Below are positions 2,691 through 17,100 of a stretch of DNA of 20,938 nt, piece by piece. Positions within the stretch are counted from its first letter, which is position 1. The number at the start of each line of letters is the position of its first letter. The stretch is from the IMG/VR virus record IMGVR_UViG_3300046656_000178, positions 1-20,938 of that record; one strand, 5' to 3'. Below the pieces are notes generated by a model. It searched no databases. It was not told the DNA's origin and worked only from the letters and a program-made list of their open reading frames with translations. A program made the translations under genes and the position numbers. The DNA is from a virus.

Positions 2691-3419
2691 ATGCCCGCTG
2701 CGGTCGCTGAACCAGTTGCACCTGCTCCAGCCGTTCCGCCGGCCACCACGCTTCCCGCCGGTACCGCTTCTCTTCCGCCGATGCCGGCTCCTTCTTCGCC
2801 GGCACCTGTGCCAGTCGTTGCAGAAGTTCCAGCCGGCGCAAAGCCTGCTGAGGTACCGGCGGCTGGCAGATCGCTGCTCGCGGACGAGCCCGTTGTCGCC
2901 GGGGCACCGCCGGCGACCGCCGCGGCTCCCGAGGCCTGGGGCCTGAAGGCCCCCGAGAAGTCGCTGCTCACCGCCGACGATCTGACGGGCATCGAGAAGT
3001 GGGCGAAGGACTCAGGCTTCTCGAAGGAGCAGGCCCAGAAGTACGTCGAGCGCGAGAGCGCCGGCCGGGCTGCCAATGCCGAGGCCGCCAAGACCCAGCA
3101 GGACACCGCCTACAAGGCGCTCTACACGACCTGGGGCGATGACCTGAAAGCGGACAAGGAGTTCGGCGGCGAGAAGCTGCCCGAGACCCTGGCCGCGGCC
3201 AAGAAGGCCCTGCGCGTGTTCGCCTCGCCCGAGGAACGCGCCTTCCTCGATTCGACCCCGTTCGGGAACAACCCGATCCTGGTTCGGATCCTCGCCCGCG
3301 CGGGCGCCAAGATTTCCGAAGACTCGTTCGTTGCGGGCGCCGGCAACCCGGCGCCTCCCAAGTCCCCGTCGCAGATCGCCTACGGCTCTGACCACGCCAA
3401 ACCCTCGTCGTTCCGCTAG
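2691..3419 (+). CDS. Capsid assembly scaffolding protein
   Basis: 242 residues placed immediately before the major capsid gene, the standard scaffold position. Residues 1-80 are a low-complexity Pro/Ala/Val arm without predicted structure; residues 85-180 are charged and helical (KSLLTADDLTGIEKWAKDSG, then an Ala/Glu/Lys-rich helix that may form a coiled coil). The segment DLKADKEFGGEKLPETLAAA near 150-170 and a following STPFGNNPILVRILARAG near 190-208 match the usual pattern of podovirus scaffolds (tryptophan, D-x-E-(F/L)-GG, then G-N-x-P-x-L). The end is basic (SFR), fitting the capsid-binding C-terminal helix of scaffolds. It would act inside the procapsid as a temporary core and leave before DNA packaging. 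The ATG has no clear ribosome site; the sequence before it holds an inverted repeat. The stop overlaps the capsid gene's ribosome site. Confidence 0.8.
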   Translation: MPAAVAEPVAPAPAVPPATTLPAGTASLPPMPAPSSPAPVPVVAEVPAGAKPAEVPAAGRSLLADEPVVAGAPPATAAAPEAWGLKAPEKSLLTADDLTGIEKWAKDSGFSKEQAQKYVERESAGRAANAEAAKTQQDTAYKALYTTWGDDLKADKEFGGEKLPETLAAAKKALRVFASPEERAFLDSTPFGNNPILVRILARAGAKISEDSFVAGAGNPAPPKSPSQIAYGSDHAKPSSFR

Positions 3420-8727: not shown

Positions 8728-9273
8728 ATGATGGATGCAGGCGCTGGGGGCGGCGAAGGAGCCCCGATCCAATCATCGAGCGGAGGCGTATTCAACGCCT
8801 CGCCGTACATCACCGCCGCGGGCGGGATCCTCTCGGCCTACGGGCACTACAAGTCGGGCCGCTACAACCAGGCGGTCGCCCGGTACAACGCCAGCCTCGC
8901 CCGGATTCAGGCGGCTCAGGCCCTCGAAGCCGGGCGCCAGGGGGAGAACGTTCGGGATCTCAAGAGCCGGCTCGCCCAGGGAGAGATCGCCTCGAACTTC
9001 GCCGGCCAAGGCGTCGTGGTAGGCGCCGGCACCAGCCGGGCGGTCATGGATACCGAAGCCTCGCTGTCCGAGATGGACAAGCTGATGATCGGGATCAACG
9101 CTCGCCGCTCGGCGTTCGGATATCAGTCTGCCGCGGCCGAGCAGGAACAGCGCGGCGAGTTCGCTCGTCGTGAGGGGGACGCCAACGCGATCAGCACGCT
9201 GCTCGACACCGGAGCGCAGCTCGAACTGCAATCGGATCGTGCGTACCAGGGCCGCGGAAGCCAGAACCCCTAG
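8728..9273 (+). CDS. Internal virion protein, T7 gp14-like (ejected core protein)
   Basis: 181 residues; ATG one base after the nozzle stop, with AGGA seven bases upstream. After a short Gly-rich start, residues 30-60 read YITAAGGILSAYGHYKSGRY, a small Gly/Ala hydrophobic stretch followed by RYNQAVARYNASLARIQAAQ, a long Ala-rich amphipathic helix. Then DLKSRLAQGEIASNFAGQGV (about 78-97) and VVVGAGTSRAVMDTEASLSE, and Ala/Glu-rich helix to the end. This matches the small ejected proteins of T7-like and BPP-1-like phages (T7 gp14), which sit in the head core and insert into the outer membrane on infection. The gene order (nozzle, small, medium, giant internal protein) gives independent support. 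Not a classical transmembrane protein; no signal peptide. Confidence 0.8.
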   Translation: MMDAGAGGGEGAPIQSSSGGVFNASPYITAAGGILSAYGHYKSGRYNQAVARYNASLARIQAAQALEAGRQGENVRDLKSRLAQGEIASNFAGQGVVVGAGTSRAVMDTEASLSEMDKLMIGINARRSAFGYQSAAAEQEQRGEFARREGDANAISTLLDTGAQLELQSDRAYQGRGSQNP

Positions 9274-9275
9274 CC

Positions 9276-11156
9276 ATGCCAGCATTCCCTTCGGAACTCC
9301 CGGGTGAACAGGTCCAGGTCCAGCCCACCGCTGGGCTCGGAATGGATGCGACGCCGACGGCCTATGGCGCCGGGATCGGCCGGTCGATCCGCAACATCGG
9401 TGAAGTCGAGAGCAAGCTCTACCGGGACGAGGAAGCCCGGCAGGACAACGTGGCCGTGATGGCCGCCTACAACAAGATGTCTGACTGGACGCTCAAGAAT
9501 CTCTATCACCCCGACACCGGGATCCTGAACAAGAACTTGGGCGCGGACACCGCTCCTGAAGTCGACAAGACCCTGACCGACTACGACGCCACGGTCTCGA
9601 AGGTCCGGTCGGGCCTCGACCCCCGCCAGCAGAGCGCGTTCGACCGCATGCAGCGGGAACACTACTTCCAGGTCAAGCACCAGCTCTATGGCTACGAAGC
9701 AAAGCAGAACCGCGAGTATGCGGATCAGCAGACTTCGACTCTGATCCAGAATCAGCACGATGCCGCGGTGCAGCATGCTCGGATCGGGGATCTCCCTGGT
9801 GATGAATCCAGCGCCTGGGCACACCGGGTTGAAGACAACATCAGCATCTCGAATGCGGCGATCCGAGATTCAGCAGCTCGCAATGGACTGCCCGCCGAAG
9901 CGGTCCAACAGCAGGTACAGGCGAACACCAGCGCGATCCATATGCAGGTGATGAGCGAGCTGATGGCGAATGATCAGACCCAGGACGCCAAAGCCTGGTA
10001 CCAGGAGCATGCCAGCGATCTGATCGGGCGGGATGCGATCCAGGCTGCCCGTATGCTGAAGTCCGGGGAGACCAAGGACGAATCGCGTGCGATCAACGAT
10101 TCGATCCTCGCAGAGCAGCGCACCGAATACGAGAAGCCAGCGGTCCCTGATCCGGCTGGAATCCTCGGAGTCCAGGAGCGGCCGGAGCCGACACTGGCTG
10201 ACGCCCTCGCGCGGCTCGAAGCTCGGAACATCAAGGATACCCCGACCTACGACCAGACGAAGGAGCGCCTGCGCCAGCACTACACGCTGGAAGCCGCCGC
10301 GAAGCATCAGGAGCAGGCCGAGCTGATGCAGCAGGCCGATGACCAGCTTCGCGCTCCGAACAGCAACTTCGACATCTCGGCCGATGTGCTCGGCAAGCTC
10401 GATCCGAAGAACCTGAAGGCGGCTTTGGCAAATCAGAAGAATGCGCGTGAAGGCGGGCTGATCGTCAGTGACGAGAGCACGAAGCTCATGTTGCGGACGA
10501 TGGCGGCCGAGCCTTCGCAATGGGATCAGTTCGCGCAGCTCATTCCCCAGGAGTACGATTCCAAGCTCAACAAGGCGGATCGCGCGGCATTCCTGAACGA
10601 GATCGCCCATGTTCGCGGGCAGGTCGAGAAGCGAGATCAGCGGCTATCCCAGGGCATGGTCGCTACTCAGATCGCTTCCAGAATCTTCCAGGAGAACAGC
10701 CTGACGCTCCCCCAGGGAGCCCCGGGAACGTCCGATGCCCCGGGCGGCGCGAATTACACCGCGATGGCGGCCAAGCGGAATGCCTTCATGGATCAGCTCA
10801 ACCGTTCGGTGAATGCCGATGCGGTAATCAAGAAGCGCGAGCTGAACGAAGAAGAGATCCAGGCGCATGCGAACAAGCTGTTCGCTCAGGTATCCTGGCA
10901 GGCCCCCGCAACGACCTTCTGGGACGAGTTCAAAGCCTATGGCACCCCCGAAGGGAAAGCTGTCGTCATGCGCACGGCTCCAGCGTATCTCGCCCCAGGC
11001 GCGGCGAAGCGGGCCTACCGGATTCAGGATATCCCGATCCACATCAGAACCGCGATGGAGAAGACCTTCCAAGACAAGGGAGTGAAATACGATCCGAGCC
11101 GGATCGTCGAGGAGTACAACATCCAGGTCCAGGAACGTGCCAATGCCCAACCCTGA
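9276..11156 (+). CDS. Internal virion protein, medium (T7 gp15-like position)
   Basis: 626 residues, Gln/Ala/Glu-rich and almost wholly helical, with several long charged helices that could form coiled coils (for example EEARQDNVAVMAAYNKMSDW near 50-69 and ERLRQHYTLEAAAKHQEQAE near 325-345). No enzyme motif, signal peptide or membrane span seen. The place between the small gp14-like protein and the giant internal protein is that of T7 gp15, a periplasmic channel component; sequence resemblance to T7 gp15 itself is not claimed. The N-terminus (GEQVQVQPTAGLGMDATPTA, near 9-28) has the Q-V-x-P pattern common at the start of podovirus internal proteins. The ribosome site is weak (GGAAG too far upstream), so translation probably follows from the previous gene, two bases away. 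Its last bases overlap the next gene. Confidence 0.85.
   Translation: MPAFPSELPGEQVQVQPTAGLGMDATPTAYGAGIGRSIRNIGEVESKLYRDEEARQDNVAVMAAYNKMSDWTLKNLYHPDTGILNKNLGADTAPEVDKTLTDYDATVSKVRSGLDPRQQSAFDRMQREHYFQVKHQLYGYEAKQNREYADQQTSTLIQNQHDAAVQHARIGDLPGDESSAWAHRVEDNISISNAAIRDSAARNGLPAEAVQQQVQANTSAIHMQVMSELMANDQTQDAKAWYQEHASDLIGRDAIQAARMLKSGETKDESRAINDSILAEQRTEYEKPAVPDPAGILGVQERPEPTLADALARLEARNIKDTPTYDQTKERLRQHYTLEAAAKHQEQAELMQQADDQLRAPNSNFDISADVLGKLDPKNLKAALANQKNAREGGLIVSDESTKLMLRTMAAEPSQWDQFAQLIPQEYDSKLNKADRAAFLNEIAHVRGQVEKRDQRLSQGMVATQIASRIFQENSLTLPQGAPGTSDAPGGANYTAMAAKRNAFMDQLNRSVNADAVIKKRELNEEEIQAHANKLFAQVSWQAPATTFWDEFKAYGTPEGKAVVMRTAPAYLAPGAAKRAYRIQDIPIHIRTAMEKTFQDKGVKYDPSRIVEEYNIQVQERANAQP
11131..11134 (+). 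promoter_or_regulatory. Ribosome-binding site deciding the start of the giant internal protein
   Basis: AGGA lies eight bases before ATG at 11143 but only two bases before GTG at 11137. The normal spacing favours the ATG, making a 14-base overlap with the end of the preceding gene. Confidence 0.55.
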
Positions 11157-14100
11157 CCAGGAGGCAGAAGCCGACCAGTTCGCCGCTGGTCTCTCGACTC
11201 GACTCGAACAACAGGCTGCGAATCCTCCGGCCGCCCCGACGGCTGAAGACGAGGATGTCGCTTATCACACCAAGCGGACGGCTGAGGTCGCGGATCAGTT
11301 CGTCGGCGCGCAGAAGGCCCTGCTCGCGTCGAGCTTGTCGGCTGCTGTCGAGTCCAAGCCAGAGCATAAGTCGAAAGTCGTCGCGCTCGCAGACAAGTTG
11401 AACTTGTCGGCGGATGTGGTCGAGCAGAGTTACGACTACCTGAATCAACGCGTCCAGCTCCAGGACGCCGATTACCAGAAGCTCCTGGACCATCATCCCG
11501 AGATGGCGACCTGGCTGACGGTTCCCGAGAACGCTGCGCTATCGCACGACGATCTGCCAGTCCTGCGGATGATGGACAACGTGACTAAGCGGATGGATGG
11601 GAAGCCCCACGATCCGACCGGGATCCTGCCTGACGGCTATATGTTCAAGCCGGATGGCACGATCCGGGGACCGCTTCGGGAAGACGGTAGCGAGCCGACG
11701 GTCTACAAGTCGATCGATTCGCTGCGGGAGAAGTTCCAGCGCGACGAAGCCGATCAGCATGTGACCGACGTTCTGAACGAGCGGCTGGCTGAACATCTTC
11801 AGCGCAGTTCCTGGTTCCCGAACATCGAAGCCGGCGCGGCGTCGTCGATCGCGTCCACGTTCTCGGCCGTCGAATCGATCTTCGGAGAGCCCCGCGGGGC
11901 CGGGGCGGCGCTCGACGCTCGTCGGTTGTTCGAGTCCCAGCTCGCTGCCCAGTCGGCCAGCCAGCCAGGCGTGATCGGCGGCGCAAGTCGAATGATCGGC
12001 TCGCTGATCGGTGACGCGCCGTTGTATCTGTTTGGCGGCGAAGTCGCTGGTGTCACGGATCTGGTGAAGTCGCTGACCGTCGCCAAGGCGCTGGCGACCC
12101 GCCTGCCGGCCGTGGCCCAGAGCGAGTACCTGGCCGATGCCTTCCGAACGGCGGCGGTCTACGCTCCGATCGGCATCCGTAGTGGGATCACCACCGGCCA
12201 GGACGAAGGACTCCAGTTCGGAGTCATCAATGGTCTGATCAACACCTTCGTCCCGGCGGCAGCAGGTTCCCGTCTCGGTATCCCGGCGGCCCTGCTCCAA
12301 GGCGAAGAAGCGATTGCCTCGACGCCGTGGCTCGGGGCGGCTAGTCGGCTCGCGGCGCATGTCGGATCCCAGGGCGGGATCATGGCTGCCACCGAGCTGG
12401 CGAACGCGATCCATGAAGTCACTGCTGGCGTCGATCCTGATGCCCTGAAGTCCGCGAATCTGATCCCTCGCCTGATGCAATCAGGCTTCGCGGGCGGGGT
12501 CTTGGCCGGGGCGTTCCATCTTCCTGGGATGATCCATGCCCAGATGGGCCGCCAGCAGATCGCCGCGCGCGCGGCTCTGCTCGATGCCGACTCCTTGGGC
12601 ACCCTGGTCGAGCTGGCTCAGGCCTCGAAGTTGAATCAGCGCAGCGGTCAGCGGGCGAAGGATCTGCTGGAGAAGCAGCTCGGAGAGACGAACTCGGAAC
12701 GGCACTTCCAGTCGGATGACTGGGAAGGTATCGCCAAGGATGCCGGGATGACCGGCGATGAACTCGCCGCGGCGATGAATGTCGAGGAGCAGTGGCGAGT
12801 CGCCAAGTCCGCGGGCTCGTCGATGCAGGTCAAGACGGCTGATCTGGTCATGGGCCTCGCGGGCATGAAAGAGGAGAAGGGGATCACTTCGATCCTCCAG
12901 GCGTCACGCAAGGCCCCTGAAGCGACCAGTGGTGCCGAGGCGTTGGAGTTCTACAAGACCGCTCCCGGTGAAATCGAAGCTGGCCTGAAGAAGCTGAAGG
13001 AGGACATCGCAGAGGAAGCCGGGCGGGTCACGGAGACTGATCCGATCTATCAGGACTTCCTCGCCAAGGTACTCGACGCCGGGCGTCCGATCCAGGAAGC
13101 CCGGGACGATGCCCGGATCATGGCTGCTCGGTTCAATGTCCGGGCGATCCGTTGGAACGTCGGCGCGGCCGCGCGCGGAGCCCCCGAGCAGGTTCCGTTC
13201 GCAGAGTACCAGAAAAATATCCTCGGGGTCTTCGGGCCCAGGAATCTACCCGAGGCTCTGAAGGAGCCAGCAGACGTGGCGCTGGCCCAGCCAAGCCCTG
13301 AGCAAGAGCTGGCCGGTGGTGGATTCGTCAAGCGCCGCGGCGCGAAGGAGCCAGAGACTCCGACGCCGATCACCGGGGCCAAGGTCCTGCCGGAAGGCGA
13401 ACCGAAGCCCCCGACAGAGCCTCTGAAGCAGCCAGGCAAGAAGACGCCGCGCGGGTACTATGATCCGGTTCGGAAAGTCATCGTCCTGACTGAGCACCAG
13501 AATCTCTCGACGGTGCTCCATGAGATGGGGCACTCGTTCCTGGAACTGATGAACAAGGATGCGCAGGATCCGCTCGCTCCTGAATCATTCCGAACGGACT
13601 TCAAGACCGTGCTCGACTTCTTGGGCGTGAAGTCCTGGGCCGAAGTCGGCAAGGAGCAGCACGAGAAGTTTGCTCGGGCATTCGAGACCTATCTCATGGA
13701 AGGCAAGTCGCCGTCGCCGGAACTTGCCTCCACGTTCCAGCGGTTTGCGATCTGGCTCAAGAATGTCTACCGGGGCATGAAGGGACTGGTCGCGCTGACT
13801 CCTGAAGTCACTTCAGTATTCGATCGCACCTTGGCGACTGACGAAGCTATCGCGCGCGCGAAGGAGGATCTGGGACAGACCAGCACCTTCTTCAAGGACG
13901 AAGCCGACTTCGGTCTAGGGGCCAAGGAATGGGAACGCTACCTGAAGCTGAATCAGCAGGAGAAGGACACGCTCTACGCTTCGGTGTTCCGAGAAGCGAT
14001 GCGGGCGATCCGGCATGAGAATAGCCGGGTCTACGCTCGGGAACGCGCATCGGCTACCGCTCGCGCAACCGATATCATCAACGCCAAGCCGGAGAGCCGG

Positions 14101-17100
14101 GCGGAAGACTTCTTCGTCAAGGGGATCGGCGCTGATGGCAAGACCCTGACCGAGAAGCCCAAGCTCGATCGGAAGGACATCACCGATTCGTTCGGAGAGA
14201 CCGCCTGGAAGGATCTCCCGCGCGGAACCACTGAGGAGGGCGGGCTCAGTCTGAAAGCGGCGGCCGACGCCGTGAATACCGTGCTGGGCTACCAGCATTT
14301 CAAGGACGGATCCGATCTGTTCCAGGCCCTCTCGAAGCGGGTTGATCGGAAGCAGGCCATCAAGCAGTTGGCTGATGATCTGATCAAAGCGGAGAATCCA
14401 GAGCTGACTCCTGACCAGATGATCGAGCGGGCGCTGGACGCCGTGCATGAGAACCAGGCAGCGGCGGATCTCCTGAATCTGCGTTCCGCTGCCCTGGCGT
14501 TCAAGGCCAAGCGTCGGGCGGAATCCACGAAGCAGATCAAGCAGCTCGCGGAGACGATCATCGGGGGCATGGGCCATCGGGATGTGAAACCGAATCGATA
14601 CCTGCTCGGTCAGCGCCGGGGCAACATCGATGCGCAGAAAGCCTTCTTAAAGGAGGACTTCTCGGGGGCCTTCATGGCTGCCCAGAAAGCTGAACTGAAC
14701 TTCCATCTCTACAAGGCGGCGCTCGAAGCCCGGAAGACGATCACGAAGACGGCTGGATTGATGGACGATGCGGGGCGCACGTCCACGCGCGAGATGCTGG
14801 GGAAGGCCGGCGGCGAAAGCTGGCGCGTCAGGCTCGCGGACGGTGAGCTGTACCCTGAGACCTTCTGGAATCAGCCCGAAGCCGCGGATACCGCCAAGGC
14901 GACCGGCGGCGAGATGATCGCTGGTCCGACCTATCTTAGCGCCATGGACGAACTGCATGGCTTCTGGACGAATCGCGCGGTTCGGGATCGTCTGACTTCT
15001 GGTCAGGTCGATAGCTTCTATCGGGAAGCGAAGTCGATCATGCACCAGGCCCGGGAAGCGTCCTCGATCCGAATCCGCGGCGAGCAGCAGAAGCTGGCTG
15101 ATGTGTCCGAGCCCCTAGTTGCCAGCGGGAATATCCACGCCAAGCCAGTCAAGCTCCGGCCCTGGTCGGCCAGCCTCTGGGACAAGACCGGGAAGTACGC
15201 GCTCGCCAAGTTCGATGCCTTCCATCGGAAGATGTCGTTCGTCGTCCGGGAAATGGATGGCGAGAAGGAGGGCGGCGTCGGATTCGATTACCTCGTGCGG
15301 CCAGTTAACGCCGCTGGGGATCACGAACTGACGCTGAAAATCCAGAACTCGACCGAGATGCAGCGACTCGTGGCGGAGTGGGGCAAGGGCGGGAAGCTAC
15401 ACAGCTCGGAGTTCATACCGGCCCTCGGCGGCCCCATGAGCCTCGAAACCAAGATCATGGTGTTCCTGAACTGGGGATCGACGAAGAACCGGGAACGAGT
15501 CCTGACTGCTGGGATCAACGGGCATACCGTCACCAAGGAGCAGATCGAGGCCGTCATCAAGACCCTCGACAAGTCGGACATCACCTTCGCGAAGGGCGTG
15601 GCGAATCTGATCAACAGCCACTGGCCCGCGCTGAAAGGCGTGACCGAGCGCCTGACCGGATTGCCCCCTGAGAAGCGGGACGAGCTGCCGATCGAGACGG
15701 CGTTCGGCACCATGGATGGGCACTATTTCCCGCTCGTCTACGATCCTGAAGCATCGGCGCGGTATCTCGATATCTCGCTGAAGGCCGCGCCTGCGCGCAA
15801 CCGATCGACTCCCTGGGCTGGATTCACGAAGCACACGGTCGAGACCACGGGCCGCCCGCTCCTGTTCGATTCCCGGGCGATCTTCCGGCACCTCGATGCG
15901 ACGGCGCACTTCATCAGTCACGCCGAATACGCCGCCGACGCGAACAAGATCCTGAACGATGCCAGCTTCAAGGAGATGATGATCGGCCGCTATGGCATGG
16001 ACGCCTACAAGGTCCTACGCGATACGATCCAGGCCGTGAACCGTGGGCCACAAGGGCCGCAGAATCTGGCCGAGTCGATCATTCGCTGGCTGCGAATCAG
16101 ATCCGGCATGGCCGTGATGGGCTTCAACGCCATGTCCGGCTCGTCGCAGCTGTTCGGGATGTCCCAGTCGATGGAACGGGTCGGTGCGGCGAACTATCTC
16201 AGAGCCCAGCTCCAGGTGATGGCGAACGCCGCATCCGTCGAATCCTCGTCGGCCATGGTCAAGTCGATGTCCGAGATGATGCGGAATCGAGACGCCGCCC
16301 GCGTTCCCGAAGCGATCGAATCCCTGGACGTGCTGAAGGGTACGCCCGACTGGGTTCGGCAGCATGCCTACTGGATGATGAACAAGATGCAGTGGCTGGT
16401 CGACGTGCCGACCTGGGTCGCTGCTCACGAACTCGCGGTGAAGGACTTCCCCGGCGACGCCGCCAAGTGCGTGGCGCTTGCAGATCAGGCGGTTCTGGAG
16501 ACGCAGGGATCCGGCATGATGAAGGATCTGGCCGGCGCCCAGCGGGCGAACGAGTTCGTGAAGACCCTGATGCAGTTCGGGAGCTTCTTCAGTTCGACCT
16601 ACAACATGCTTCGGCCCGGGATCACGAACGCGACCTTCAAGGATCCGTCCAGCATCGCCCGCTTGGCGGGATCGTTCTGGATGCTGGTCAGCCTGCCCGC
16701 GGTCGCTATGTCCGTGTTCCAGGAGACAGTTCGCAAATCCCCCGAGAACAATGGGTCCGCGAAGTATTGGGCAGAGCACCTGGGGGCAGCGAACCTGGGC
16801 TACCTGCTGAACACCGTGATCCTCGGGCGTGAGCTGTCGGGAGCCCTGGCTGGATTCGACTACAAGGGCCCATCGGGCATGCGCGCGTTCTCGGTCCTGT
16901 CGGATCTGATCAAGCAGGTCGGACAGGGAAAGGCCGACCATGGGCTCGAACGGGCCGCATTGTCTGCGACCGGCCTGTTCTGGGGACTGCCCTCGAATCA
17001 ATTGCAGCGAATCATCGACGGGATCATGTACGATATCGAGCACGGCAGCGTGAATCCGCTGCCGGCGATCTATGGCCCGCCCCCGAAACGGCATCCCTGA
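11143..17100 (+). CDS. Giant internal virion protein with gluzincin-type peptidase motif
   Basis: 1985 residues, about 28% of the window. Counted from ATG 11143. Residues 1-280 are charged and helical. Residues about 285-465 hold Gly/Ala-rich hydrophobic stretches (for example GFAGGVLAGAFHLPGMIHA near 448) that could insert into a membrane. Residues 793-797 are HEMGH, a zinc HExxH site, with E841 in HEKFARAFETYLMEGK a plausible third ligand, the gluzincin arrangement. Then comes a PSPELASTFQRFAIWLKNVY helix, as in peptidase domains of other phage giant proteins. GTMDGHYFPLVYD near 1522-1534 and the IRSGMAVMGFNAMSGSSQLF block near 1650-1670 are further phage-type blocks. FWMLVSLPAVAMSVF near 1845-1859 is a hydrophobic helix. 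In role it corresponds to T7 gp16, ejected ahead of DNA to form the inner-membrane end of the channel. T7 gp16 has a transglycosylase; here I see a peptidase instead. Activity is inferred, not shown. Confidence 0.92.
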   Translation: MPNPDQEAEADQFAAGLSTRLEQQAANPPAAPTAEDEDVAYHTKRTAEVADQFVGAQKALLASSLSAAVESKPEHKSKVVALADKLNLSADVVEQSYDYLNQRVQLQDADYQKLLDHHPEMATWLTVPENAALSHDDLPVLRMMDNVTKRMDGKPHDPTGILPDGYMFKPDGTIRGPLREDGSEPTVYKSIDSLREKFQRDEADQHVTDVLNERLAEHLQRSSWFPNIEAGAASSIASTFSAVESIFGEPRGAGAALDARRLFESQLAAQSASQPGVIGGASRMIGSLIGDAPLYLFGGEVAGVTDLVKSLTVAKALATRLPAVAQSEYLADAFRTAAVYAPIGIRSGITTGQDEGLQFGVINGLINTFVPAAAGSRLGIPAALLQGEEAIASTPWLGAASRLAAHVGSQGGIMAATELANAIHEVTAGVDPDALKSANLIPRLMQSGFAGGVLAGAFHLPGMIHAQMGRQQIAARAALLDADSLGTLVELAQASKLNQRSGQRAKDLLEKQLGETNSERHFQSDDWEGIAKDAGMTGDELAAAMNVEEQWRVAKSAGSSMQVKTADLVMGLAGMKEEKGITSILQASRKAPEATSGAEALEFYKTAPGEIEAGLKKLKEDIAEEAGRVTETDPIYQDFLAKVLDAGRPIQEARDDARIMAARFNVRAIRWNVGAAARGAPEQVPFAEYQKNILGVFGPRNLPEALKEPADVALAQPSPEQELAGGGFVKRRGAKEPETPTPITGAKVLPEGEPKPPTEPLKQPGKKTPRGYYDPVRKVIVLTEHQNLSTVLHEMGHSFLELMNKDAQDPLAPESFRTDFKTVLDFLGVKSWAEVGKEQHEKFARAFETYLMEGKSPSPELASTFQRFAIWLKNVYRGMKGLVALTPEVTSVFDRTLATDEAIARAKEDLGQTSTFFKDEADFGLGAKEWERYLKLNQQEKDTLYASVFREAMRAIRHENSRVYARERASATARATDIINAKPESRAEDFFVKGIGADGKTLTEKPKLDRKDITDSFGETAWKDLPRGTTEEGGLSLKAAADAVNTVLGYQHFKDGSDLFQALSKRVDRKQAIKQLADDLIKAENPELTPDQMIERALDAVHENQAAADLLNLRSAALAFKAKRRAESTKQIKQLAETIIGGMGHRDVKPNRYLLGQRRGNIDAQKAFLKEDFSGAFMAAQKAELNFHLYKAALEARKTITKTAGLMDDAGRTSTREMLGKAGGESWRVRLADGELYPETFWNQPEAADTAKATGGEMIAGPTYLSAMDELHGFWTNRAVRDRLTSGQVDSFYREAKSIMHQAREASSIRIRGEQQKLADVSEPLVASGNIHAKPVKLRPWSASLWDKTGKYALAKFDAFHRKMSFVVREMDGEKEGGVGFDYLVRPVNAAGDHELTLKIQNSTEMQRLVAEWGKGGKLHSSEFIPALGGPMSLETKIMVFLNWGSTKNRERVLTAGINGHTVTKEQIEAVIKTLDKSDITFAKGVANLINSHWPALKGVTERLTGLPPEKRDELPIETAFGTMDGHYFPLVYDPEASARYLDISLKAAPARNRSTPWAGFTKHTVETTGRPLLFDSRAIFRHLDATAHFISHAEYAADANKILNDASFKEMMIGRYGMDAYKVLRDTIQAVNRGPQGPQNLAESIIRWLRIRSGMAVMGFNAMSGSSQLFGMSQSMERVGAANYLRAQLQVMANAASVESSSAMVKSMSEMMRNRDAARVPEAIESLDVLKGTPDWVRQHAYWMMNKMQWLVDVPTWVAAHELAVKDFPGDAAKCVALADQAVLETQGSGMMKDLAGAQRANEFVKTLMQFGSFFSSTYNMLRPGITNATFKDPSSIARLAGSFWMLVSLPAVAMSVFQETVRKSPENNGSAKYWAEHLGAANLGYLLNTVILGRELSGALAGFDYKGPSGMRAFSVLSDLIKQVGQGKADHGLERAALSATGLFWGLPSNQLQRIIDGIMYDIEHGSVNPLPAIYGPPPKRHP

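What the first reader, a model, noticed from the sequence alone, without database searches (positions are those of the whole stretch)
13519..13671. Gluzincin-type zinc-peptidase motif inside the giant ejected protein
HEMGH at residues 793-797 and E841 in HEKFARAFETYL form a plausible metal site. T7-type ejected proteins commonly carry a cell-wall lytic transglycosylase; here the visible catalytic signature is proteolytic. A peptidase ejected into the envelope could cut peptidoglycan peptides, an envelope protein, or the ejected proteins themselves, or inactivate a host defence protein on entry.
Basis: partly seen in the sequence, partly recalled or inferred. Interest (0 to 1): 0.55.

Follow-up and report, generated by a model that had tools for sequence, protein, structure and literature searches.

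The report
Zinc-peptidase hinge in phage ejection protein
A giant protein that this short-tailed phage probably ejects into its host carries a very strongly conserved zinc-peptidase domain of an already described kind, and the same peptidase-plus-core unit turns up in small mobile elements that look like phage satellites.

Summary
The motif is real. HEMGH lies at window 13519-13533 (residues 795-799 of the 1987-aa ORF; 793-797 from the second Met). Alone, HExxH is weak evidence (280 of 5000 shuffles have one), but it is invariant: 109 of 109 relatives with the domain and 80 of 80 prophage-type loci. In 20 full-length relatives, 12 of 14 invariant columns fall in this domain. AlphaFold2 puts HExxH and E843 on two confident helices. 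The best structural neighbours are zincins: anthrax lethal factor, IrrE and PPEP (Z 6.2 at most, so suggestive only). The domain joins a variable half (LPD22 and, in relatives, ART, PBECR, GNAT or ParB domains) to a ~1,100-aa helical core with weak but co-located resemblance to T7 gp16. A zincin in polyvalent ejected proteins is published (Iyer 2017), so this is a new member of a known kind. The upstream gene carries the cell-wall-hydrolase-like domain, so peptidoglycan is not the favoured target. New: three satellite-like elements keep zincin plus core under purifying selection but lack the variable half. Freeing that cargo therefore cannot be the domain's only role.

The parts
11137..17100 (+). 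giant ORF, 1987 aa, phrog_9880 family; LPD22 near the N terminus, zincin in the middle, helical core at the C terminus
11332..11592 (+). LPD22, large polyvalent protein associated domain 22 (residues 66-152)
   Evidence: Pfam PF18834 E 1.7e-11, 44.6 bits against cutoff 28.6; 16 of 20 relatives match it
13444..13791 (+). zincin-type domain (about residues 770-885)
   Evidence: alignments A1, A3, A4, AF2 model, VIA-align neighbours
13519..13533 (+). HEMGH, residues 795-799: two predicted zinc ligands and the catalytic glutamate
   Evidence: invariant H-E-x-x-H
13663..13665 (+). E843 in HEKFARAFETYL, predicted third zinc ligand
   Evidence: invariant in 28 of 28 rows and 20 of 20 full-length rows
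13849..17097 (+). conserved helical core (residues 905-1987)
   Evidence: AF2 model of residues 771-1970, mean pLDDT 82; near-constant length in relatives
15310..16314 (+). part of the core that aligns structurally with PhiM1 and T7 tetrameric ejection protein (residues about 1392-1726)
   Evidence: VIA-align 8vb2_A Z 5.7 over 201 residues, 7eyb_I Z 5.0 over 192; hhalign with the T7 gp16 family E 0.0031, Prob 10
15718..15744 (+). G-x-Y-x-P-x-x-x-D motif (residues 1528-1536) that aligns with the T7 gp16 motif GTYVPHVYD
   Evidence: G1528 invariant, Y1530 and P1532 nearly so
9276..11156 (+). upstream structural wall-hydrolase-like protein, 626 aa
   Evidence: phrog_10475 endolysin E 3.2e-21; positional counterpart of BPP-1 bbp11
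8728..9273 (+). small internal virion protein, 181 aa
   Evidence: phrog_418 E 2.5e-22

Best explanation
The motif is the active site of a zincin metallopeptidase domain of the lethal-factor/PPEP/IrrE-like fold, embedded in a virion-packaged giant protein of a podovirus. The domain sits at the hinge between a variable 'polyvalent' N-terminal half (cargo) and a conserved helical core of T7-gp16 type. Zinc would be held by H795, H799 and E843, with E796 as the general base. The most likely job is processing the phage's own ejection machinery: the peptidase cuts a defined peptide site in the giant protein itself or in a partner ejected protein, in the head or during or after ejection, so that the core can work and, where cargo is present, cargo can be freed. 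Shown: sequence, invariance, position at the hinge, predicted fold, and retention with the core under purifying selection in elements without cargo. Inferred: virion packaging, zinc binding, proteolysis, substrate and timing. My confidence that it is a real zincin domain is about 0.9; the score below is for the whole mechanism.
For: Invariant H795, E796, H799, E843 in 20 of 20 full-length proteins, with 12 of 14 invariant columns between residues 791 and 878. HExxH in 109 of 109 loci with the domain and 80 of 80 genome loci. AF2 model: HExxH on helix 29-49 and E843 (model residue 82) on helix 78-94, block pLDDT 91 and 96. All of the first 23 VIA rows are zincin-family proteins: lethal factor, IrrE and PPEP/Zmp1 (row 20 is lethal factor's N-terminal fragment). 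Hinge position: in 84 ORFs with both ends the part before HExxH spans 38-2531 aa (sd 440) and the part after E spans 215-1357 aa (sd 115). Among 20 relatives ART-PolyVal occurs in 6, PBECR5 in 2, GNAT in 2 and ddrB-ParB in 1, N-terminal of the zincin wherever I located them. Core resemblance to T7/PhiM1 ejection protein. Satellite-like copies lacking cargo keep zincin plus core with dN/dS 0.05-0.07. Iyer 2017 (PMC5512222, passages) proposes autoprocessing for zincins of phage polyvalent proteins and cites processing of P1 DdrB.
Against: No activity, zinc binding or cleaved virion product has been seen. N4 vRNAP, a comparable giant with a zincin, is packaged uncut according to Iyer 2017. No cleavage site was identified. 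VIA Z values (at most 6.2) and Foldseek E (0.25 at best) are below the level that proves a fold. The gp16 link rests on Z 5-5.7, hhalign Prob 10 and a search in which unrelated helical proteins scored alike.
Confidence: 0.42

Rival explanations
1. The zincin's main job is to release the N-terminal cargo domains (ART, PBECR nuclease, GNAT, ParB) from the core after ejection, as in a polyprotein.
For: It sits between a highly variable N-terminal part and a near-constant core; cargo-type domains lie N-terminal of it in relatives; Iyer 2017 proposes this.
Against: Three satellite-like copies have only 99 to 157 residues before HExxH and no cargo, yet keep the site under purifying selection. LPD3 lies C-terminal of the zincin in two proteins (L184, L198).
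Confidence: 0.25
2. The zincin is an effector that cuts a host protein on entry: an envelope protein, or a cytoplasmic defence or regulatory protein.
For: Fold neighbours include site-specific host-protein endopeptidases (lethal factor) and IrrE (their functions are recalled). The other domains of these giants are predicted effectors.
Against: Invariance across phages of very different hosts and retention with the core in cargo-free elements fit a machine-intrinsic substrate better than a fast-evolving host target.
Confidence: 0.18
3. The zincin cuts peptidoglycan peptide bridges to help the ejection channel through the wall.
For: Two enzymes with complementary wall cuts would be economical; an endolysin-like protein is encoded beside it.
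Against: Fold neighbours are protein endopeptidases, not wall endopeptidases; a wall-hydrolase-like domain is already present upstream; the family also occurs in a virus assigned to Methanomicrobiales, whose hosts lack murein (recalled).
Confidence: 0.07
4. The HExxH/E site is structural (a bound metal holding the hinge) and not catalytic.
For: No activity is known to me for this family or for the N4 counterpart; the passages I read of the N4 vRNAP structure preprint report the motif and no activity.
Against: The glutamate of HExxH is not a zinc ligand, yet it is invariant in all rows examined, which is what catalysis requires.
Confidence: 0.08

Closest known systems
Zincin-like MPTase domains of phage polyvalent proteins (Iyer et al. 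2017, PMC5512222)
   Same: HExxH on one helix, glutamate on the next; in giant phage proteins with LPD, ART, PBECR and ParB domains; predicted to be ejected
   Different: I could not compare with their 12 clades (their alignments are not held); no Pfam model reached its cutoff for this domain in the one member tabulated, and the best E-value among all 28 members was 0.0021
Phage N4 virion RNA polymerase gp50, C1 zincin followed by C2 helical domain (PMC12633501)
   Same: A zincin followed by about 1,100 mostly helical residues in an ejected giant
   Different: Polymerase domain absent here; profile similarity weak (zincin hhalign Prob 24, E 8e-4; core not detected)
Anthrax lethal factor / PPEP (MEROPS M34) catalytic domains
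   Same: Best structural neighbours (Z 6.2 over 98 residues; Z 4.6 over 95); E-x-F-A-x-A-F-like third-ligand helix (recalled for lethal factor)
   Different: Pfam ATLF below cutoff (14.5 against 27.4 bits); different host protein and setting
IrrE/ImmA (M78)
   Same: Z 4.7 over 70 residues; E-x-x-A-x-x-F pattern (recalled)
   Different: Pfam Peptidase_M78 matches only 2 of 28 members, best E 0.036
T7 gp16 / PhiM1 tetrameric ejection protein
   Same: Gene position after the internal virion proteins; core aligns at the same place by structure and profile
   Different: T7 gp16 carries the transglycosylase itself (PhiM1 paper passage) and has no zincin (recalled)
Phage-inducible chromosomal islands (PICI)
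   Same: Three elements with integrase, primase and small terminase; one bounded by 48-bp repeats at a tRNA
   Different: They also carry a giant ejection-type protein; none of the papers listed by my two searches was about that

Membership tests
Gluzincin (zincin with HExxH plus downstream glutamate) | HExxH conserved | tested here: met
   28 of 28, 109 of 109, 80 of 80
Gluzincin (zincin with HExxH plus downstream glutamate) | Glutamate third ligand on a following helix | tested here: met
   E843 invariant in 28 of 28 and 20 of 20; on helix 78-94 of the model
Gluzincin (zincin with HExxH plus downstream glutamate) | The three ligands within coordination distance | not testable with these tools
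   Model coordinates are not exposed; only secondary structure and structural neighbours
Gluzincin (zincin with HExxH plus downstream glutamate) | Zinc-dependent peptidase activity | not testable with these tools
   needs the bench
Peptidase family M34 (lethal factor/PPEP) | Family profile match | tested here: not met
   Pfam ATLF E 0.029, 14.5 bits against cutoff 27.4
Peptidase family M34 (lethal factor/PPEP) | Fold similarity | tested here: inconclusive
   best VIA neighbours, Z 6.2 over 98 and Z 4.6 over 95 residues, under the Z 8 guide
Peptidase family M78 (IrrE/ImmA) | Family profile match | tested here: not met
   Peptidase_M78 matched 2 of 28 members, best E 0.036
Polyvalent protein with MPTase (Iyer 2017) | Multidomain giant with LPD and effector domains plus a zincin | tested here: met
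   LPD22 in the window and 16 of 20; ART 6, PBECR5 2, GNAT 2, ddrB-ParB 1 of 20
Polyvalent protein with MPTase (Iyer 2017) | Belongs to one of their 12 MPTase clades | not testable with these tools
   Their alignments are not held; the N4 comparison gave Prob 24, E 8e-4
T7 gp16-type ejection protein | Gene order: internal virion protein, further internal protein, giant protein, tail fibre | tested here: met
T7 gp16-type ejection protein | Homologous core | tested here: inconclusive
   VIA Z 5.7 and 5.0 at the same place; hhalign E 0.0031, Prob 10
T7 gp16-type ejection protein | Present in virions and ejected | not tested
   No proteomics located in the papers read
PICI-type satellite (elements G001, G002, G125) | Integrase, primase and TerS, without head or tail genes | tested here: met
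   head and tail genes tested with 80 ORFs from ten phage sources and, for G001 and G002, PHROG scans of selected ORFs
PICI-type satellite (elements G001, G002, G125) | Attachment-site repeats | tested here: inconclusive
   48-bp repeats at tRNA-Asn in G002; none found for G001 or G125
PICI-type satellite (elements G001, G002, G125) | Induction and packaging by a helper phage | not testable with these tools
   needs the bench

The most novel reading that the evidence does not exclude
A family of phage satellites supplies its own copy of a podovirus giant ejection protein, cut down to zincin plus core, next to its own small terminase. It would thereby replace or edit the helper's ejection protein so that satellite DNA is delivered, with the zincin acting on the helper's or its own ejection proteins. 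The zincin-core pair would be the minimal ejection unit, and the polyvalent N-terminal half of phage versions optional cargo.
Probability: 0.45. Interest if true: 0.72.

Novelty: new member of a known kind. Interest (0 to 1): 0.45.

Why it matters
Zincins are described as the commonest domain of phage polyvalent proteins (Iyer 2017, passages), yet I found no substrate or activity for one in the passages and listings I read, beyond the DdrB processing that Iyer cites. This family gives a compact, testable case: an invariant site between cargo and an ejection core in isolated phages such as BPP-1, Pseudomonas AF and Caulobacter SR18. The satellite-like elements separate the zincin from the cargo and so make the 'cargo release' hypothesis directly testable.

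Tried and rejected
Chance motif: rejected by conservation, although 280 of 5000 shuffles contain HExxH.

Sequence matches in the PDB: none for P0001 at E up to 1. For profile A1 only weak unrelated or zincin rows at E 0.06 or more. For A5 one irrelevant row at E 0.39.

A direct homology test with N4 vRNAP: zincin weak and misaligned at the third ligand; core not detected. N4 solved chains exist, but VIA-align leaves out chains over 3,000 residues, so no structural comparison with the full-length chains was possible.

Foldseek on the 1200-residue model gave no E under 0.001; most VIA rows are unrelated helical proteins.

Literature: my searches for BPP-1, AF, Carin-1 and UFJF_PfDIW6 virion proteomics found no mass-spectrometry evidence for the giant in the passages read. 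UFJF_PfDIW6 g16 is listed as unknown and possibly structural (PMC8951688, passages). For satellites with ejection proteins, two searches (listings only) returned no such report; the library lacks most subscription journals.

Rows dropped: L004 and L024 (near-duplicates) and L030 (domain not found in the stretch fetched) from A1; several near-duplicates from A3 (83 of 89 available sequences including the window) and from A5 (64 sequences including the window; long-spacing and near-duplicate loci left out). The C-length range includes two odd ORFs: L060 (reading frame broken just before the zincin) and L063 (short).

Full report
OBSERVATION. The 1987-aa ORF at 11137-17100 contains a single HExxH, HEMGH, at 13519-13533 (residues 795-799). 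HEKFARAFETYL begins at residue 842. Shuffling shows that the pentapeptide alone is unremarkable (280 of 5000).

CONSERVATION. HExxH and the later glutamate are invariant in 28 aligned sequences and in 109 of 109 loci with the domain, of 110 loci scanned. HExxH is kept in 80 of 80 genome loci. The loci were selected by a pattern at the later glutamate, so only HExxH is an independent test there. In 20 full-length proteins 14 columns are invariant; 12 of them lie between residues 791 and 878 and include H795, E796, H799 and E843. This stretch holds the most conserved block of the protein. Between the window and its closest relative (L002) dN/dS is 0.13 in the domain, 0.16 in the core and 0.20 in the N-terminal part.

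FOLD. An AlphaFold2 model of residues 762-924 from 83 sequences (mean pLDDT 82.8) places HExxH on helix 29-49 and E843 on helix 78-94, in blocks of pLDDT 91 and 96. VIA-align lists only zincin-family proteins in its first 23 rows: lethal factor (Z up to 6.2 over 98 residues, 5.5 A), IrrE (Z 4.7 over 70, 3.4 A) and PPEP-2/PPEP-1 (Z 4.6 and 4.5). Row 20 there is lethal factor's N-terminal fragment. Foldseek alone is not significant (best E 0.25), and Z is below the tool's guide of 8, so the fold class rests on the combination of motif, model and neighbours. Against viral models the domain matches giant proteins of uncultured Caudovirales with E down to 6e-8. The Pfam models closest to the window's domain are ATLF (E 0.029), Peptidase_M3 and DUF6782, all below cutoff. 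The distance between the ligands could not be measured.

SETTING. The order is portal-type adaptor, a protein matching a PHROG 'protease' family, major head protein, tail proteins, internal virion protein (8728-9273), an endolysin-family protein (9276-11156), the giant protein, then a tail fibre. BPP-1 has the corresponding order, with bbp11 annotated as containing a transglycosylase and bbp10 as the giant. So the zincin accompanies a wall hydrolase by position; I did not test the catalytic type of the window's upstream protein. The giant carries LPD22.

ARCHITECTURE. In 84 ORFs with both ends the part before HExxH runs from 38 to 2531 aa (sd 440) and the part after the glutamate from 215 to 1357 aa (sd 115). 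Among 20 relatives LPD22 is in 16, ART-PolyVal in 6, PBECR5 in 2, GNAT in 2, and ddrB-ParB, PBECR1 and LPD23 in 1 each. Where I located them (seven proteins scanned, six with hits) they lie before the zincin. Two further proteins have LPD3 after the zincin. Several genome loci have the zincin without a detectable core (L121, L158, L173, L177), so the domain is modular.

CORE. A 1200-residue model of residues 771-1970 (64 sequences, mean pLDDT 82.0) is mostly helical. Among 915 chains aligned, the PhiM1 pre-infection ejectosome protein is second (Z 5.7, 201 residues) and a chain titled 'core proteins' (T7 gp16, recalled) eighth (Z 5.0, 192 residues), both on about model residues 600-950. Profile comparison with the T7 gp16 family gives E 0.0031 and Prob 10 over 97 columns at the corresponding place, aligning a G-x-Y-x-P-x-x-Y-D motif; T7 gp16 alone gave E 0.025 at the same place. 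Each line is weak. Their agreement in position makes a gp16-type core likely, not proven.

SATELLITE-LIKE ELEMENTS. In two bacterial contigs the protein is 1347 or 1288 aa, with only 157 or 99 residues before HExxH, and its neighbours are an integrase, a primase/helicase and a small terminase. The genomes are a gammaproteobacterial symbiont of Stewartia floridana and Ca. Thiodiazotropha endoloripes (titles). The primase, TerS and zincin-core proteins of the other two are 82-98% identical to those of G002, whereas their integrases are only 24.5-27.6% identical. One element is bounded by exact 48-bp repeats at a tRNA-Asn, about 18.5 kb apart; in G125 a tRNA-Lys adjoins the integrase. Of 80 ORFs from ten phage sources only giant genes match these elements, and the PHROG scans of selected ORFs in G001 and G002 gave no head or tail family other than TerS and the giant. 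Only one zincin copy was found in each of G001, G002 and G125. dN/dS of the giant is 0.05 (G002-G125) and 0.07 (G002-G001). A decayed prophage is less likely, because the same module recurs with different integrases and under purifying selection. Attachment sites were not found for G001 or G125 by exact-match search.

MECHANISM. The glutamate of HExxH is invariant, which points to catalysis. Retention of the zincin with the core where cargo is absent argues that cargo release is not its only job. I therefore favour processing of the ejection machinery itself (0.42), then cargo release (0.25), a host protein target (0.18), a structural metal (0.08) and peptidoglycan (0.07). No step beyond sequence and predicted structure is shown.

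KNOWN AND NEW. Iyer et al. 2017 (PMC5512222; passages) describe zincin MPTases as the commonest domain of polyvalent proteins, unify the N4 vRNAP one with lethal factor, and propose processing before packaging, processing after ejection, or action on host proteins. The N4 vRNAP structure preprint (PMC12633501; passages) describes a zincin-motif C1 domain followed by a large helical C2, the same order as here. The finding is thus a new member of a known kind. The possible novelty is the use of the zincin-core unit by satellite-like elements, which I did not find reported in two literature searches.

Noticed in passing
L155 1210-13050; L169 916-12795; L204/L205 (G002:C21 24096-42649); L258 (G125): Three satellite-like elements (integrase, primase/helicase, TerS) carry a 1288-1347-aa zincin-plus-core ejection-type protein and no detected head or tail genes.
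   Followed up: partly
L022 1416-2150 (Xanthomonas phage Usaquen): The HExxH-to-E spacing is 135 instead of 48; the insert looks ART-like by eye (VYHGG...). Pfam gave no hit for the whole protein, so this is untested.
   Followed up: no
L060 4003-11732: The reading frame is broken just before the zincin (1337-aa ORF then an overlapping 1258-aa ORF in another frame): a sequencing error or a natural split.
   Followed up: partly
L121, L158, L173, L177: Zincin domain without a detectable gp16-type core in the locus.
   Followed up: partly
L184 1012-1123 aa of the ORF; L198 1715-1823 aa of the ORF: LPD3 lies C-terminal of the zincin.
   Followed up: no
L027 (BK063671, vir555): A virus assigned to Methanomicrobiales carries the family, so it may reach archaeal hosts.
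   Followed up: no
L025 (PQ492659): A record with podovirus-type giant genes is filed under Inoviridae in its taxonomy line: probably a misassignment.
   Followed up: no
relatives of the giant in public records: Names such as 'crystallin beta/gamma motif-containing protein' and 'lysin' are used for this family; they hide the zincin.
   Followed up: no
window 2691-3419: A 242-aa protein matching a PHROG 'protease' family (E 1.1e-37) sits before the major head protein.
   Followed up: no
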